From: Terriglobia bacterium
GTDB taxonomy: Bacteria; Acidobacteriota; Terriglobia; Acidiferrales; UBA7541
Assembly (NCBI GenBank): GCA_023512135.1
Contig: JAIMAG010000014.1
Span: 1 to 64,000, forward strand
Reading direction: 5' to 3'
Length of the DNA: 64,000 nucleotides
The notes beneath the pieces were generated by a model. It was not told the origin of the DNA. It saw only the letters and a program-made list of their open reading frames with translations, and made no database searches. This document shows, in pieces, positions 24,149-29,076 of the stretch. The translations under genes and the position numbers were made by a program. Positions within the stretch are counted from its first letter, which is position 1; each line of letters opens with the position of its first letter.

Positions 24149-25519
24149 TTACTTTTCGAGAGCTTGAGGATGGCCGTGGGGAATCGCCTGCGGTCGGGCC
24201 GGGAAGAAGCGCGCGTCTTGTTCGGCCCGCAGCCGGTCGCAGAGCCGCCCGGGTGGAATTTCCACGTCGTCGTAGCTCAGCGCTTGATCTTTTGGGATAT
24301 CTCGTTTCAGCCGGCAGCCTTCGGCCAGGCCCATGGGCAGCAGCCGTTGTTGCTGCACCACGTCAGAATTTTCTGCGACCCCGTAAGTCATGTAGAAGCC
24401 GATGCCGTCCAGCACTTCACCGGCGCGCAAGTCTTTTTTGGCCACTGCGATGACGTCTACGCACGGTCCGCCCAGCGGGGCAATCGTGGCATCTCCGAAC
24501 AACACCGCGCGCGCCACCGTGAACGGCACTTCGAAATGGCACAGGTGGTAGGGCGTGTAGAAGCAGTACAGCGGCCCCGGTCCGAGCTTGTAGAGATTCA
24601 AGTAGTGTTTCTGCACCGGGTTGTCGTGGGTGCCGAGAACGAACACGCCCGGGCTGGGCTCGGCTCCGACAACGTAGTCCACGATGCCCGGCCCGTTCAG
24701 CAACGCGTCCTGCGGATACAACTCCACCACTTCGCGGATGTGGGTGCCCGAAGGCACCGTGGGGCCGAACATCCCGCGGCGGGCAACGCGCATGCCCGTG
24801 GCATTGGCCACAATCGCCTGCTCGAAAGAGATTTTCGTGCCGTCGGCGAACGAGGTGACCATGTGGGGTTTTTGTCCCCATTTTTTGGCAAATTCCTGCT
24901 GGGTTGTCGGGTTGCGGTACGGGTCGTGCAGACCCTTGATGTTGCCGCAGAGCACCGGCCGCACGCCGATGCCCTTCACGAAACGGTAGAGATTCAGGAT
25001 GACGCCGGGCTGGTCGCCATCGGCGTTCGTCAGTACCACGCCGGCCCGGTCAGCATACACTTTCAGGATTGGCCCGAGGGTGCCGTCGAGCTCTGCGTTC
25101 ATCAGCACCACGTGCTTGCCGAATTCGATTGCCCGCAGCACGACACCGGCAGCAAACTCGATGGAGCCGGTCACTTCGATGACGGCGTCGATGCCACCGG
25201 CTTCGGCTAGCAACAGGGCGTTGTCCGTGATGGCACAACGGCCGCGGGCGATGGCCTGCTCCAGTTGCGGCACACTGTCCACCGCAACCACGTCTTCGAT
25301 TCCCGCTTCGCTGTAGGCACGGCGCGCCTCTTCGATGCGCCGGTTCGAGATGGCTACTAGGCGCATCCCGCGCACCACGTTCGCCATCTGCAGGGCAATC
25401 CCGCGCGCCATAAAGCCCGCGCCCACCATTGCGACGCGGACCGGGTTTCCCTGCTGCTCACGTTTTTCGAGGGCTCGATCCACCAGGATCACGGAACCAT
25501 CCTCGGTCAGTTTTCTCAC
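24149..25519 (-). CDS. Homoserine dehydrogenase-like protein with SAF domain
   Basis: NAD(P)-binding protein of the COG4091 type, 456 residues. An N-terminal Rossmann domain has VAMVGAGFMARGIA (about 29-42) and ITDNALLLAEAGGIDAVIEVTGS; the middle has KGLHDPYRNPTTQQEFA and a GTKISFEQAIVANATG segment as in homoserine-dehydrogenase-like enzymes. The C-terminal ~90 residues form a SAF domain (DVIAVAKKDLRAGEVLDGIG, RDIPKDQALSYDDVEIP), shared with sialic acid synthase and antifreeze proteins. The start is GTG 25519, overlapping the stop of the upstream glycosyltransferase as GTGA. The 43 codons in frame above it overlap that gene. The reaction is unknown; within a nucleotide-sugar locus it could act on a modified sugar acid. 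Confidence 0.85.
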   Translation of the reverse strand: MRKLTEDGSVILVDRALEKREQQGNPVRVAMVGAGFMARGIALQMANVVRGMRLVAISNRRIEEARRAYSEAGIEDVVAVDSVPQLEQAIARGRCAITDNALLLAEAGGIDAVIEVTGSIEFAAGVVLRAIEFGKHVVLMNAELDGTLGPILKVYADRAGVVLTNADGDQPGVILNLYRFVKGIGVRPVLCGNIKGLHDPYRNPTTQQEFAKKWGQKPHMVTSFADGTKISFEQAIVANATGMRVARRGMFGPTVPSGTHIREVVELYPQDALLNGPGIVDYVVGAEPSPGVFVLGTHDNPVQKHYLNLYKLGPGPLYCFYTPYHLCHFEVPFTVARAVLFGDATIAPLGGPCVDVIAVAKKDLRAGEVLDGIGFYMTYGVAENSDVVQQQRLLPMGLAEGCRLKRDIPKDQALSYDDVEIPPGRLCDRLRAEQDARFFPARPQAIPHGHPQALEK

Positions 25520-26388
25520 ACTGGCGGTTTGCTGCGGAACTTGAGCATACCGATGGTATAGCCCATCTGCCAGCCGAAAGACCAGAACCAGTGGCAACGT
25601 CCGGTTCGAGTGCGCCAGTCCGGTATGCGAAGCAACAGTTGCAACCACCGCTCGACATACACGCGCCAGCGCCAGCGGTCCCGGTACCCTTTCGGACGGT
25701 AGCGTTTGTAGAGCCGAACGTTGTACTTCGCGTAGTTTCTTCCCTGCCGATACAAGCCCAGGGCGGTATCCCGGTAGCGGTAGTGCACCACGGCATCCGG
25801 GACCGACACCAGGGTGGCGCCGGCCAGTTGTGCACGGATGCAGAAATCTGCGTCCTCCAAGTAGGCGATGCTTTCGTCGAATCCCCCGATGCGTTCGTGC
25901 AGGGCGCGGCGCACCCCGAGGGTTGCACCTGCTGCGTGAGGTAGATGAGGAGGATACCAGAGTGGTACCTGTGCCCCGTCGGGCTGCGGGTTGGCGTGCA
26001 CGAGCCGCAGCCAGGGAGGGTTCAGCTTGTCAATATCCATCCGGCACGCGACCAGTTCGTGCGTTTCGAGTGCGCGGGTCATCGCCGGCAGCCAGTTGTC
26101 ACCGACTTCGTCGTCCGCGTCGCAGTGCAGCAACACGTCACCACGGGCGGCGGCGACACCCACATTTCTGGCAAAGCCCGGCGAGCGACGCTGGTACGCT
26201 TCCACAAGGCGAAGGTTGGGCAGGCGATTGCGGAATTGCTCGACGATGTCCCGCGAACGATCGGTGCTGCCATTGTCCGCGACGATGACTTCCCATTCCT
26301 CGTCGCAGCGCTGGCGCGCCAGCGCGGCGAGCTGCTGGCCAATGGTGCGCTCGGCGTTCCGGCAGGGGATGATCACACTGATGCGCAT
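25516..26388 (-). CDS. Glycosyltransferase family 2
   Basis: GT-A inverting glycosyltransferase of 290 residues: N-terminal RISVIIPCRNAERTIGQQL, EVIVADNGSTDRSRDIV and the metal site HCDADDEVGDNWL, with FDESIAYLEDADFCIRAQ as the catalytic acidic region. The C-terminus is basic and aromatic (GRCHWFWSFGWQMGYTIG), perhaps a membrane-associated tail. It lies 148 bases behind the epimerase-type gene rfbC and overlaps the SAF-domain gene by four bases, tying transferase and dehydrogenase synthesis together. Confidence 0.92.
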   Translation of the reverse strand: MRISVIIPCRNAERTIGQQLAALARQRCDEEWEVIVADNGSTDRSRDIVEQFRNRLPNLRLVEAYQRRSPGFARNVGVAAARGDVLLHCDADDEVGDNWLPAMTRALETHELVACRMDIDKLNPPWLRLVHANPQPDGAQVPLWYPPHLPHAAGATLGVRRALHERIGGFDESIAYLEDADFCIRAQLAGATLVSVPDAVVHYRYRDTALGLYRQGRNYAKYNVRLYKRYRPKGYRDRWRWRVYVERWLQLLLRIPDWRTRTGRCHWFWSFGWQMGYTIGMLKFRSKPPV

Positions 26389-26536
26389 GTTCGTCTGGCT
26401 TCACATCGTCATCGCGGCGAGCGGCAGGCACTGCGGGCGAGCGAATACGCGTTCCGGTTTCGGGCCACCGGGTCGCTCGAATCTCGAATCAGGGCAACGG
26501 AACTTTTCTGCCCTTGGGTTCGCTGGGCCGCGCTAT

Positions 26537-28273: not shown

Positions 28274-28302
28274 GTCACTCACCAACCTGCGCGCTCTCGC
28301 CG

Positions 28303-29076
28303 CTACCAGATTTTCCAGGGTGCGTTGCCGGATTCCCAAAGCTTCTCGAGTACCATTTTGTCCCGCAGTGTGTCCATCGGCTGCCAGAACCCGCGGTGGC
28401 GATAGGCGGCAAGCTGTCCCTGTTTCGCCAGGGTTTCCAAGGGCTCGCGCTCCCAGACTGTGGAATCGTCAGCGATGTAATCCATCACCTGCGGCTCGAG
28501 CACAAAAAATCCACCGTTGATCCAGCCGCCTTCCCCATCTGGTTTCTCGTGGAACGTGCTGACCTTGTTTTCTTCCCGGCCTAGGCTGATGGCCCCGAAG
28601 CGTCCCGGGGGTTGTACGGCGGTCATGGTGGCCAGTGTTTTCTGGGCGCGGTGAAACGCAATCAACTCGGTCAAATTGATGTCGGCGACACCGTCGCCGT
28701 AGGTCATACAGAACGTTTCGTTGCCCAGGTAGCGCGCCACGCGCTTCAGTCGACCGCCAGTCATGGTGTTGTCGCCGGTATCCACCAGAGTGACCCGCCA
28801 GGGCTCCACGCCGTTCATATGGACTTCCTGACGGTGCTGGCGGAGATCGAACGTCACATCGGACATGCGCAGCGCATAGTTGGCAAAGAATTCTTTGATC
28901 AGGTGGCCCTTGTATCCGAGACAGATCACGAAATCATTGATCCCATGCGCCGAATAGATCTTCATGATGTGCCAGAGAATCGGACGGCCACCGATCTCCA
29001 CCATCGGCTTTGGACGCACCGCACTTTCCTCGCTGATGCGCGTTCCGTATCCGCCCGCCAGAATGACCGCCTTCAT
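28303..29076 (-). CDS. rfbF: Glucose-1-phosphate cytidylyltransferase
   Basis: Makes CDP-glucose from CTP and glucose 1-phosphate, the first step to CDP-linked 3,6-dideoxyhexoses and branched sugars. The 257 residues match RfbF throughout: LAGGYGTRISEES with VRPKPMVEIGGRPILWHIMKIY at the N-terminus, FCMTYGDGVADI, the INGGFFVLEPQVMDYI motif and the end FWQPMDTLRDK. ATG 29076 is preceded by GAGGAG. Normally rfbG (CDP-glucose 4,6-dehydratase) follows; here an epimerase-like SDR takes its place. Confidence 0.95.
   Translation of the reverse strand: MKAVILAGGYGTRISEESAVRPKPMVEIGGRPILWHIMKIYSAHGINDFVICLGYKGHLIKEFFANYALRMSDVTFDLRQHRQEVHMNGVEPWRVTLVDTGDNTMTGGRLKRVARYLGNETFCMTYGDGVADINLTELIAFHRAQKTLATMTAVQPPGRFGAISLGREENKVSTFHEKPDGEGGWINGGFFVLEPQVMDYIADDSTVWEREPLETLAKQGQLAAYRHRGFWQPMDTLRDKMVLEKLWESGNAPWKIW

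What the first reader, a model, noticed from the sequence alone, without database searches (positions are those of the whole stretch)
24149..29076. CDP-sugar module lacking RfbG/RfbH and containing a SAF-domain dehydrogenase
Seen: rfbF (glucose-1-phosphate cytidylyltransferase), an extended SDR, an RmlC-type epimerase, a GT2 and a homoserine-dehydrogenase-like SAF protein lie in this order, with GTGA coupling of the last two. Known: CDP-glucose is normally turned over by RfbG (4,6-dehydratase) and RfbH toward 3,6-dideoxyhexoses. Neither is visible here. Inference: the SDR may perform the dehydration and the SAF protein a further oxidation, giving a CDP-linked sugar not described for this gene set.
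Basis: partly seen in the sequence, partly recalled or inferred. Interest (0 to 1): 0.72.

Follow-up and report, generated by a model that had tools for sequence, protein, structure and literature searches.

The report
CDP-sugar pathway toward branched furanose
Five neighbouring genes look like a widespread but undescribed route that oxidises and flips CDP-glucose and then, with a protein related to an isoprenoid-pathway enzyme, probably contracts its ring into a rare branched sugar of bacterial surface polysaccharides.

Summary
The five genes are real and in the stated order; the genome has no RfbG or RfbH over cut-off. The cassette SDRs read SSCSxYG (54 of 57), not T[TS]DKxYE as RfbG. By sequence the SDR's best solved relative is Cj1427, a C4-dehydrogenase using alpha-ketoglutarate. 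The SAF protein is a DRL/DXR-II relative of the uncharacterised DLO1 type. RmlC is present in 78 of 80 related loci. The 4-ketone slot holds this SDR or RfbG, rarely a decarboxylase plus 6-dehydrogenase, so each version should yield a CDP-4-keto sugar. L-2-hydroxyglutarate oxidase accompanies the SDR (24 of 52) and not RfbG (0 of 13). I infer CDP-glucose, 4-ketone, 3,5-epimer, then reductive ring contraction by SAF to CDP-3-C-hydroxymethyl-L-lyxose (dihydrohydroxystreptose, DHHS). The DLO1 protein of Coxiella, which makes DHHS, interpolates to CBU1836, beside SDR CBU1837 and the proven epimerase CBU1838; the two other DHHS enzymes are described in print as unidentified. No product was shown. 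Plain C4-reduction by SAF is the main rival.

The parts
28303..29076 (-). rfbF, glucose-1-phosphate cytidylyltransferase: makes CDP-glucose
   Evidence: TIGR02623 463 bits, cut-off 300; only over-cut-off copy in the genome
27167..28273 (-). extended SDR, predicted CDP-glucose C4-dehydrogenase without 6-dehydration
   Evidence: PF01370; best phmmer PDB match 6vo6 Cj1427; AlphaFold model pLDDT 93, 6vo6 Z 34.6, rmsd 2.0, 294 aligned, tied with other SDRs; motif SSCSVYG, against T[TS]DKxYE in RfbG
26537..27079 (-). RmlC-type 3,5-epimerase, TTG start preceded by AGGAG
   Evidence: TIGR01221 196 bits, cut-off 156; His61 and Tyr131 (numbering of P0003) align with the catalytic pair
25516..26388 (-). 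GT2 glycosyltransferase; may transfer the product (inference)
   Evidence: PF00535; a homologue over 90 bits in only 2 of 80 loci, L058 and L089
24149..25492 (-). SAF/DRL protein of DLO1 type, predicted CDP-4-ketosugar reductoisomerase (alternative upstream GTG at 25519)
   Evidence: PF21135 DRL_cat 190 bits; model pLDDT 90, 3upy Z 49.7; next DXR-I and homoserine dehydrogenase, tied near Z 19; start
29134..30471 (-). ABC exporter ATPase (Wzt-like) with C-terminal extension, 57 bp upstream of rfbF
   Evidence: PF00005, NF050108 197 bits, below its cut-off of 400
30479..31402 (-). ABC exporter permease (Wzm-like)
   Evidence: PF01061

Best explanation
The genes make a CDP-activated branched furanose for a polysaccharide exported by the adjacent ABC transporter. 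Step 1: RfbF makes CDP-glucose (family assignment). Step 2: the SDR oxidises C4 to CDP-4-keto-glucose and keeps the 6-OH. By analogy with Cj1427 it would pass the hydride to alpha-ketoglutarate, giving L-2-hydroxyglutarate (inferred). Step 3: the RmlC-type enzyme inverts C3 and C5, giving the L-lyxo-4-ulose (inferred from family). Step 4: the SAF protein acts as DXR does on 1-deoxyxylulose 5-phosphate: it opens the C2-C3 bond by retro-aldol, closes C2 to C4 and reduces the extruded C3 aldehyde with NAD(P)H (inferred). The product would be CDP-3-C-(hydroxymethyl)-L-lyxofuranose, i.e. CDP-dihydrohydroxystreptose, an isomer of CDP-glucose. A glycosyltransferase, perhaps the GT2, transfers it (inferred). 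Sister operons with RfbG would give the 5-deoxy sugar dihydrostreptose, and those with a decarboxylase and a 6-dehydrogenase an apiose-like sugar.
For: Exchangeable ways to a 4-ketone beside the same RmlC-SAF pair: of 80 loci SDR only in 52, RfbG only in 13, both in 1, neither in 14; 2 of the 14 (L106, L124) carry a decarboxylase/6-dehydrogenase pair downstream of SAF, and 4 loci of another sample have that pair between RfbF and RmlC. On the SAF tree (92 rows, 71 labelled) the slot changed at least 8 times, also inside Pontibacter and Nostocales. Of 6 loci with neither whose genomes were searched, SDR lies elsewhere in 5, RfbG in 3, at least one in 6. LhgO, which would recycle L-2-hydroxyglutarate, is with the SDR in 24 of 52 and with RfbG in 0 of 13 (Fisher 0.0012, kinship ignored); Deinococcus has rfbF-lhgO-SDR-rfbC-SAF as consecutive genes. 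RmlC in 78 of 80, within 300 bp of SAF in 67 of those 78. In 369 genomes of one class RmlC lies within 1.5 kb in 20 of 22 DLO1-type genes and 0 of 8 low-scoring DRL genes (Fisher 7.7e-6). SAF fold: DXR-II Z 49.7, next near 19. Coxiella makes DHHS; its DLO1 protein NP_820815 (PMC3847144) interpolates to CBU1836 from NP_820808 = CBU1829 (PMC10740251), next to SDR CBU1837 (PMC3539893) and proven 3,5-epimerase CBU1838 (PMC9095892).
Against: No activity or product was measured. DXR-II residues Lys193, Thr229 and Arg320 are Leu197, Ile230 and Thr322 here, so the DXR active site is only partly kept. The methionine that PMC9095892 links to room for a 6-OH is Phe in this RmlC; in 55 sister RmlCs with the SDR it is Phe 32 / Tyr 23, in 14 with RfbG Tyr 14. 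LhgO is absent from the window operon; a homologue elsewhere scores 250 bits, below its cut-off of 299. 19 of the 26 loci with LhgO are cyanobacterial (names, list), and on independent pairs the link is not significant (about 2 to 0, p 0.5). The structural match to Cj1427 is tied with 4-epimerases and dehydratases. One DLO1-type relative with 16.6 kb read (L040) shows no RmlC, and an 11.6 kb contig (L177) shows RmlC and SAF but neither RfbF nor SDR. Coxiella uses RmlA (dTDP), not RfbF, and its gene position is an interpolation.
Confidence: 0.58

Rival explanations
1. Same first three steps, but the SAF protein is a plain C4-ketoreductase, an unrelated stand-in for RmlD. The product is then an ordinary CDP-L-hexopyranose (L-manno or L-talo type, or the C3 epimer).
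For: The SAF gene takes the place of RmlD in an rml-like order. In Campylobacter HS:41, a cytidylyltransferase, a 4,6-dehydratase, a 3,5-epimerase and a C4-reductase give CDP-6-deoxy-L-altrose (PMC12369002). Homoserine dehydrogenases, which do not rearrange (recalled), share the fold (Z 18.8).
Against: By far the closest fold is the reductoisomerase DXR-II (Z 49.7; DXR-I and homoserine dehydrogenase tie near 19). Coxiella has a DLO1 protein and makes DHHS. A branched product needs one rearranging enzyme, and none other is visible in the operon.
Confidence: 0.28
2. One reading: the SDR is the 4,6-dehydratase and the SAF protein a further oxidase.
For: Fold match to 4,6-dehydratases is as good as to epimerases. 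RfbG is absent from the genome.
Against: SSCSxYG without the Asp of RfbG (54 of 57). True RfbG replaces the SDR in sister operons. SAF relatives work reductively.
Confidence: 0.04
3. The SDR is a GalE-like 4-epimerase (CDP-glucose to CDP-galactose) and the SAF protein serves something else.
For: GalE is its best NCBIfam hit (82 bits, far below the cut-off of 262) and GalE-type structures tie in the fold list.
Against: An epimerase would not be expected to be exchangeable with RfbG or with a decarboxylase beside RmlC, nor to need LhgO.
Confidence: 0.06
4. The SAF protein is a second DXP reductoisomerase for isoprenoids and its place here is accidental.
For: DRL family member.
Against: The genome has canonical DXR at 480 bits. 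The substrate Thr229 is Ile, as in DLO1. PMC3847144 (section 6, first part of section 5, and passages seen) says four DLO proteins failed to complement a dxr mutant. The neighbourhood is conserved across phyla.
Confidence: 0.02

Closest known systems
Proposed DHHS pathway of Coxiella burnetii (PMC9095892; Discussion and passages seen)
   Same: RmlC-type 3,5-epimerase next to an SDR and, by interpolation, a DLO1 SAF protein; ABC transporter genes wzm/wzt are reported in an O-antigen region (PMC3204966, passage)
   Different: RmlA (dTDP) there, RfbF (CDP) here. The authors expected an RmlD paralogue for ring contraction and say that the enzymes for the two remaining activities are still to be identified
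Campylobacter GDP-heptose set Cj1427-Cj1430-Cj1428 (PMC10680097; passages seen)
   Same: C4 oxidation without dehydration by an SDR that uses alpha-ketoglutarate, then a 3,5-epimerase, then a reductive step
   Different: GDP-heptose substrate; last enzyme a C4-reductase giving a pyranose, not an SAF protein
Brucella DRL / DXR-II (3upl, 3upy; PMC3847144)
   Same: Whole fold and domain order including SAF, 34% identity, Z 49.7
   Different: Lys193, Thr229 and Arg320 replaced; different gene context; DXR-I present in this genome
UDP-apiose synthase (PMC5324594; passages seen) and dihydrostreptose synthase of streptomycin (recalled as StrL)
   Same: Same predicted net chemistry: 4-ketone, retro-aldol/aldol ring contraction, reduction of the aldehyde; that paper suggests streptose-type sugars may arise this way
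   Different: UDP-apiose synthase is a short-chain dehydrogenase (recalled); no SAF/DRL protein was seen linked to such chemistry in the listings
Campylobacter HS:41 CDP-fucofuranose / CDP-6-deoxy-altrofuranose pathway (PMC12369002)
   Same: CDP-glucose followed by a 4-ketone and a 3,5-epimerase
   Different: Uses a 4,6-dehydratase, a C4-reductase and a flavin mutase; no SAF protein is named in the abstract and section that I saw

Membership tests
Glucose-1-phosphate cytidylyltransferase (RfbF) | TIGR02623 over cut-off | tested here: met
   463 bits against 300
CDP-glucose 4,6-dehydratase (RfbG), for the SDR | TIGR02622 over cut-off; T[TS]DKxYE motif | tested here: not met
   TIGR02622 not among the SDR's matches; motif SSCSVYG
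3,6-dideoxyhexose pathway | RfbG and RfbH in the genome | tested here: not met
   RfbG best 76 of 278 bits; RfbH best 146 of 423 bits in the six-frame search, 171 for the best scanned protein
RmlC 3,5-epimerase | TIGR01221 over cut-off and the catalytic His/Tyr | tested here: met
   196 of 156 bits; His61, Tyr131
DRL/DXR-II-like superfamily | PF21135 catalytic domain plus SAF domain | tested here: met
   190 and 34.5 bits; fold Z 49.7
DXR-II (functional DXP reductoisomerase) | Thr229 and Arg320 (Brucella numbering) | tested here: not met
   Ile230 and Thr322
DLO1 type | Leu/Ile/Val at position 229 | tested here: met
   Ile230 with the criterion from PMC3847144; no tree with the named DLO1 proteins could be built
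Cj1427-type C4-dehydrogenase | sequence and fold nearest to Cj1427 | tested here: inconclusive
   Best by phmmer, 4e-22; Z tied with other SDRs
Cj1427-type C4-dehydrogenase | alpha-ketoglutarate-dependent oxidation of C4 | not testable with these tools
   Only indirect: LhgO neighbours
DHHS biosynthesis set | SDR, RmlC and DLO1 genes together in a DHHS producer | tested here: inconclusive
   Coxiella positions from accession interpolation and papers; the locus itself was not seen
DHHS biosynthesis set | product identified | not testable with these tools
   needs biochemistry

The most novel reading that the evidence does not exclude
DLO1 SAF proteins are nucleotide-sugar reductoisomerases, a new enzyme class that contracts 4-keto pyranoses to branched furanoses. 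Fed by three interchangeable 4-ketone makers, they give CDP-dihydrohydroxystreptose, CDP-dihydrostreptose or CDP-apiose-like sugars; the gene set was seen in 15 phyla (14 by NCBI names, plus that of Terriglobia). They supply the missing ring-contraction step (CBU1836), and the SDR the missing C4 oxidation (CBU1837), of the Coxiella O-antigen sugar that the literature calls unique to that species.
Probability: 0.5. Interest if true: 0.88.

Novelty: new variant of a known kind. Interest (0 to 1): 0.77.

Why it matters
PMC9095892 (2022) calls finding the enzymes for the two remaining DHHS activities 'the key challenge' and describes streptose and DHHS as each produced by a single organism. This gene set names candidates for both, makes them testable with harmless genes, gives a function to an enzyme family left uncharacterised in 2013 (PMC3847144), and predicts that streptose- and apiose-type sugars are common in environmental bacteria under CDP activation. 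It also suggests that a DXR-type reductoisomerase fold acts on nucleotide sugars.

Tried and rejected
Rejected: SAF as the genome's DXR (canonical DXR present); SDR as dehydratase (motif); a clean residue marker in RmlC for 6-OH against 6-deoxy substrates (the Phe/Tyr split is partial and may follow kinship). The independent-pairs test of LhgO was inconclusive.

Led nowhere: reaching Streptomyces or Coxiella genomes by name; a paper search with a term that matched 'structure' and one for StrU/StrL. The S. griseus DLO1 accession YP_001827426 may, by my recall of that genome's numbering and of the cluster's place, lie at the edge of the streptomycin cluster; not checked. The sigma-70 scan found no promoter-like site in 23000-32500 (2.5 expected by chance). 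Papers were seen as outline with abstract, named sections or passages, never whole; others only in search listings. Absence from print rests on searches of an open-licence library and on their listings.

Rows and counts: L125 duplicates G016/L041; it was dropped from the tree but stays among the 80 loci. Loci on short contigs stay in all counts of 80; 60 of the 80 have full flanks (SDR 43, RfbG 11, both 1, neither 5). The gene listing lost some SAF genes by its overlap rule and was not used for counts. Of the 21 of 80 loci without RfbF in reach, 16 genomes were searched. Of the 14 loci with neither SDR nor RfbG, 6 genomes were searched. Larger stretches were fetched for 9 of the 22 DLO1-type loci. 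Six plasmid homologues of 32-37% identity were opened as controls; that gene table is incomplete by its own description.
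Full report
What is there. The minus strand of 24149-31402 reads as one run of seven genes: ABC-exporter permease, ATPase, rfbF, SDR, RmlC-type epimerase, GT2 and SAF protein. The RmlC gene starts at TTG 27079 after AGGAG. The genome (2.83 Mb, 97.4% complete) has one over-cut-off RfbF, no RfbG (best 76 bits, cut-off 278), no RfbH (best 146 bits in six frames, cut-off 423; the two strongest of 11 DegT/DnrJ hits score 171 and 159 as proteins) and a canonical DXR (480 bits).

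The SAF protein. It carries the DRL catalytic domain PF21135 and a SAF domain. Its sequence relatives in the PDB are the Brucella DRL entries 3upl/3upy near 1e-70, then one homoserine dehydrogenase. The predicted structure (pLDDT 90) matches 3upy with Z 49.7 over 428 residues (rmsd 3.1); DXR-I and homoserine dehydrogenases follow, tied near Z 19. Compared with Brucella DRL, Lys191 is kept (Lys195), Lys193 is Leu, Thr229 is Ile and Arg320 is Thr. PMC3847144 (section 6, first part of section 5 and passages) reports that Leu, Ile or Val at 229 occurs in the DLO1 family, an uncharacterised sister of DXR-II, and that four DLO proteins failed to replace DXR. So the protein is a DRL relative but not a DXR-II.

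The SDR. Its best PDB relative by sequence is 6vo6, Cj1427 (4e-22). Its predicted structure (pLDDT 93) gives 6vo6 Z 34.6, rmsd 2.0, 27% identity, tied within one Z unit with several 4-epimerases and dehydratases, so fold alone does not decide. PMC10680097 (passages) describes Cj1427 as a dehydrogenase that oxidises C4 of a GDP-heptose, holds NADH tightly and needs alpha-ketoglutarate, which becomes L-2-hydroxyglutarate. In the aligned cassette SDRs Ser121, Ser122, Cys123, Tyr126, Gly127, Tyr146 and Lys150 are invariant (30 rows). Among those scoring over 250 bits the motif read SSCSxYG in 54 of 57 (1 SSCIMYG, 2 without a call), against T[TS]DKxYE in 12 of 15 RfbG-like proteins, 3 without a call. 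The Asp of RfbG, which in such dehydratases serves as acid (recalled), is therefore missing.

The neighbourhood across genomes. One scan with the profile A1 gave 80 loci, 58-75% identical in the best segment. In these, RmlC is present in 78 (not L058, L079), within 300 bp of the SAF gene in 67 of those 78; RfbF in 59. Of the 21 without RfbF in reach, 16 genomes were searched and 15 have an over-cut-off RfbF elsewhere; the exception is the Mesorhizobium genome (L091). The slot that must supply the 4-ketone holds this SDR family alone in 52, RfbG alone in 13, both in 1 (L110) and neither in 14, many on short contigs. Six of these 14 (five with full flanks) were searched genome-wide: the SDR occurs elsewhere in 5 of 6, RfbG in 3 of 6, at least one in all 6. 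RfbG identity was checked by TIGR02622 at 487-518 bits in three loci. On a maximum-likelihood tree of 92 SAF proteins, with 57 SDR and 14 RfbG labels, the slot changed at least 8 times, for example among Pontibacter and Nostocales species (quick tree with several weak forks). Such in-place exchange argues that SDR and RfbG deliver the same kind of intermediate, a CDP-4-keto sugar, to the same RmlC-SAF pair. Among eight stretches from relatives of the window's genome RmlC is seen in 6; L039 is a contig end, and L040 (16.6 kb) shows SDR, SAF and an RfbF-like gene but no RmlC.

A third supply. Four loci of the class of L052 (Granulosicoccaceae; Gammaproteobacteria by recall), L178-L181, read RfbF, an SDR, a second dehydrogenase, RmlC, SAF. 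The dehydrogenase fits TIGR03026 (434 bits, cut-off 190) in L178. The SDR of L180 is closest in the PDB to UDP-glucuronate decarboxylase (1e-44), with motif STSEIYG in L180 and L181. L106 and L124 of the 80 loci carry the same pair downstream of SAF. Read literally this makes CDP-glucuronate and then a CDP-4-keto-pentose, whose ring contraction would give an apiose-like sugar. This is inference; the pair could also serve UDP-xylose.

The redox partner. An L-2-hydroxyglutarate oxidase (NF008726, 625 bits in L059, below its cut-off in L047 and L112) lies in 24 of 52 SDR-only loci, 0 of 13 RfbG-only loci, 1 of 14 with neither and the one with both. 19 of these 26 are cyanobacterial; the other 7 come from seven phyla. 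Deinococcus taeanensis has rfbF, lhgO, SDR, rfbC and SAF as five consecutive genes with gaps or overlaps of 4 bases. This fits an SDR that dumps its hydride on alpha-ketoglutarate, while RfbG is redox-neutral. Fisher p is 0.0012 but ignores kinship; on independent pairs only about 2 to 0 and not significant. The window's genome has a weaker homologue elsewhere (250 bits in the six-frame search, 268 for the protein, cut-off 299).

Controls. In 369 genomes of the class of L052 (matches up to 1e-60 only), 22 DLO1-type hits (578-740 bits) stand apart from 8 weak DRL hits (212-241 bits). RmlC lies within 1.5 kb in 20 of 22 and 0 of 8 (Fisher 7.7e-6); larger stretches of the two exceptions, L182 and L183, show RmlC 4-5 kb away, and of the 9 larger stretches RfbF or an RfbF-like gene is seen in 8, not in L177. 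Among 101 relatives, RfbF (E up to 1e-60) occurs in 8 of 9 DLO1-type genomes and 19 of 92 others (Fisher 8e-5); in six of those 8 the enzyme scores only 209-224 bits, below cut-off. Six plasmid homologues at 32-37% identity had no rfb genes annotated within 8 kb.

Link to a known sugar. Coxiella burnetii O-antigen contains dihydrohydroxystreptose, 3-C-(hydroxymethyl)-L-lyxose (PMC5843353, passage; furanose form in PMC9503072, passage). PMC9095892 (Discussion and passages) shows that CBU1838 is a 3,5-epimerase, proposes C4 oxidation, epimerisation and ring contraction, and says that the enzymes for the two remaining activities are to be identified. PMC3847144 lists NP_820815.1 of strain RSA 493 as DLO1. 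PMC10740251 lists 14 accessions and 14 locus tags which, ranked, pair NP_820808.1 with CBU_1829. Seven further on is CBU_1836. CBU_1837 is described as an NAD-dependent epimerase/dehydratase near RmlA CBU_1834 (PMC3539893). The ranking and counting are mine and could be off by a gene. If right, SDR, RmlC and DLO1 are neighbours in the one known DHHS producer.

Mechanism and its limits. Glucose and DHHS are isomers, so C4 oxidation followed by one reduction balances. The net rearrangement is the one PMC5324594 (passages) proposes for UDP-apiose synthase, retro-aldol between C2 and C3, re-closure and reduction of the aldehyde, and that paper suggests it for streptose-type sugars. PMC9095892 instead speaks of the C3-C4 bond; I follow the apiose scheme. 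Steps 1 and 3 rest on family assignment, step 2 on exchangeability with RfbG, motif and LhgO, step 4 on family chemistry and the Coxiella link. I put about 0.85 on a CDP-4-keto sugar being epimerised and passed to the SAF protein, and 0.58 on ring contraction rather than plain reduction.

Novelty. Searches of the paper library for the SAF domain with RfbF (no papers), for CDP-glucose with epimerase, SAF domain and streptose terms, for DHHS and for lyxofuranose-type names showed no description of this gene set in their listings. The parts are known families; the assembled pathway and the proposed function of DLO1 are new. Hence 'new variant of a known kind'.

Noticed in passing
L138, L139, L142 around 7965-12725: Distant DRL homologues on plasmids sit next to TPP-dependent dehydrogenase E1 subunits and an acyltransferase E2, in L139 and L142 also PTS glucitol genes: they may serve breakdown of a branched polyol.
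   Followed up: no
L134:513-8511: Paroceanicella has rfbF, rfbC, DUF4910, a SAM methyltransferase, the same SDR type and an FAD oxidoreductase but no SAF gene in the stretch: perhaps another branch from the CDP-4-keto sugar.
   Followed up: no
L041:10433-11975: A lower-scoring RfbF-like subfamily (217-222 bits in two checked, cut-off 300) goes with DLO1-type SAF genes in relatives of the window's genome; in L041 it lies beside a PIG-L deacetylase.
   Followed up: partly
L115:2817-8148: Two SAF genes and two RfbF-like genes with one RmlC on one 8.5 kb contig.
   Followed up: no
window 32976-34052: FemAB protein of the XrtA/PEP-CTERM exopolysaccharide system (TIGR03019, 375 bits) close to the ABC-exported locus.
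   Followed up: no
window 21127-23076: 649-residue protein with DUF6798, downstream of the cassette on the same strand, beyond a plus-strand frame.
   Followed up: no
not in the window (PMC3847144): Streptomyces griseus, the streptomycin producer, has a DLO1 protein (YP_001827426.1). By recalled numbering it may lie at the edge of the streptomycin cluster, which would be a second link of DLO1 to streptose.
   Followed up: partly
L041 and L125: G016:C6 and Terriglobia contig JAIQEW010000009.1 have the same length and gene set, so the window's family probably belongs to Terriglobia.
   Followed up: partly
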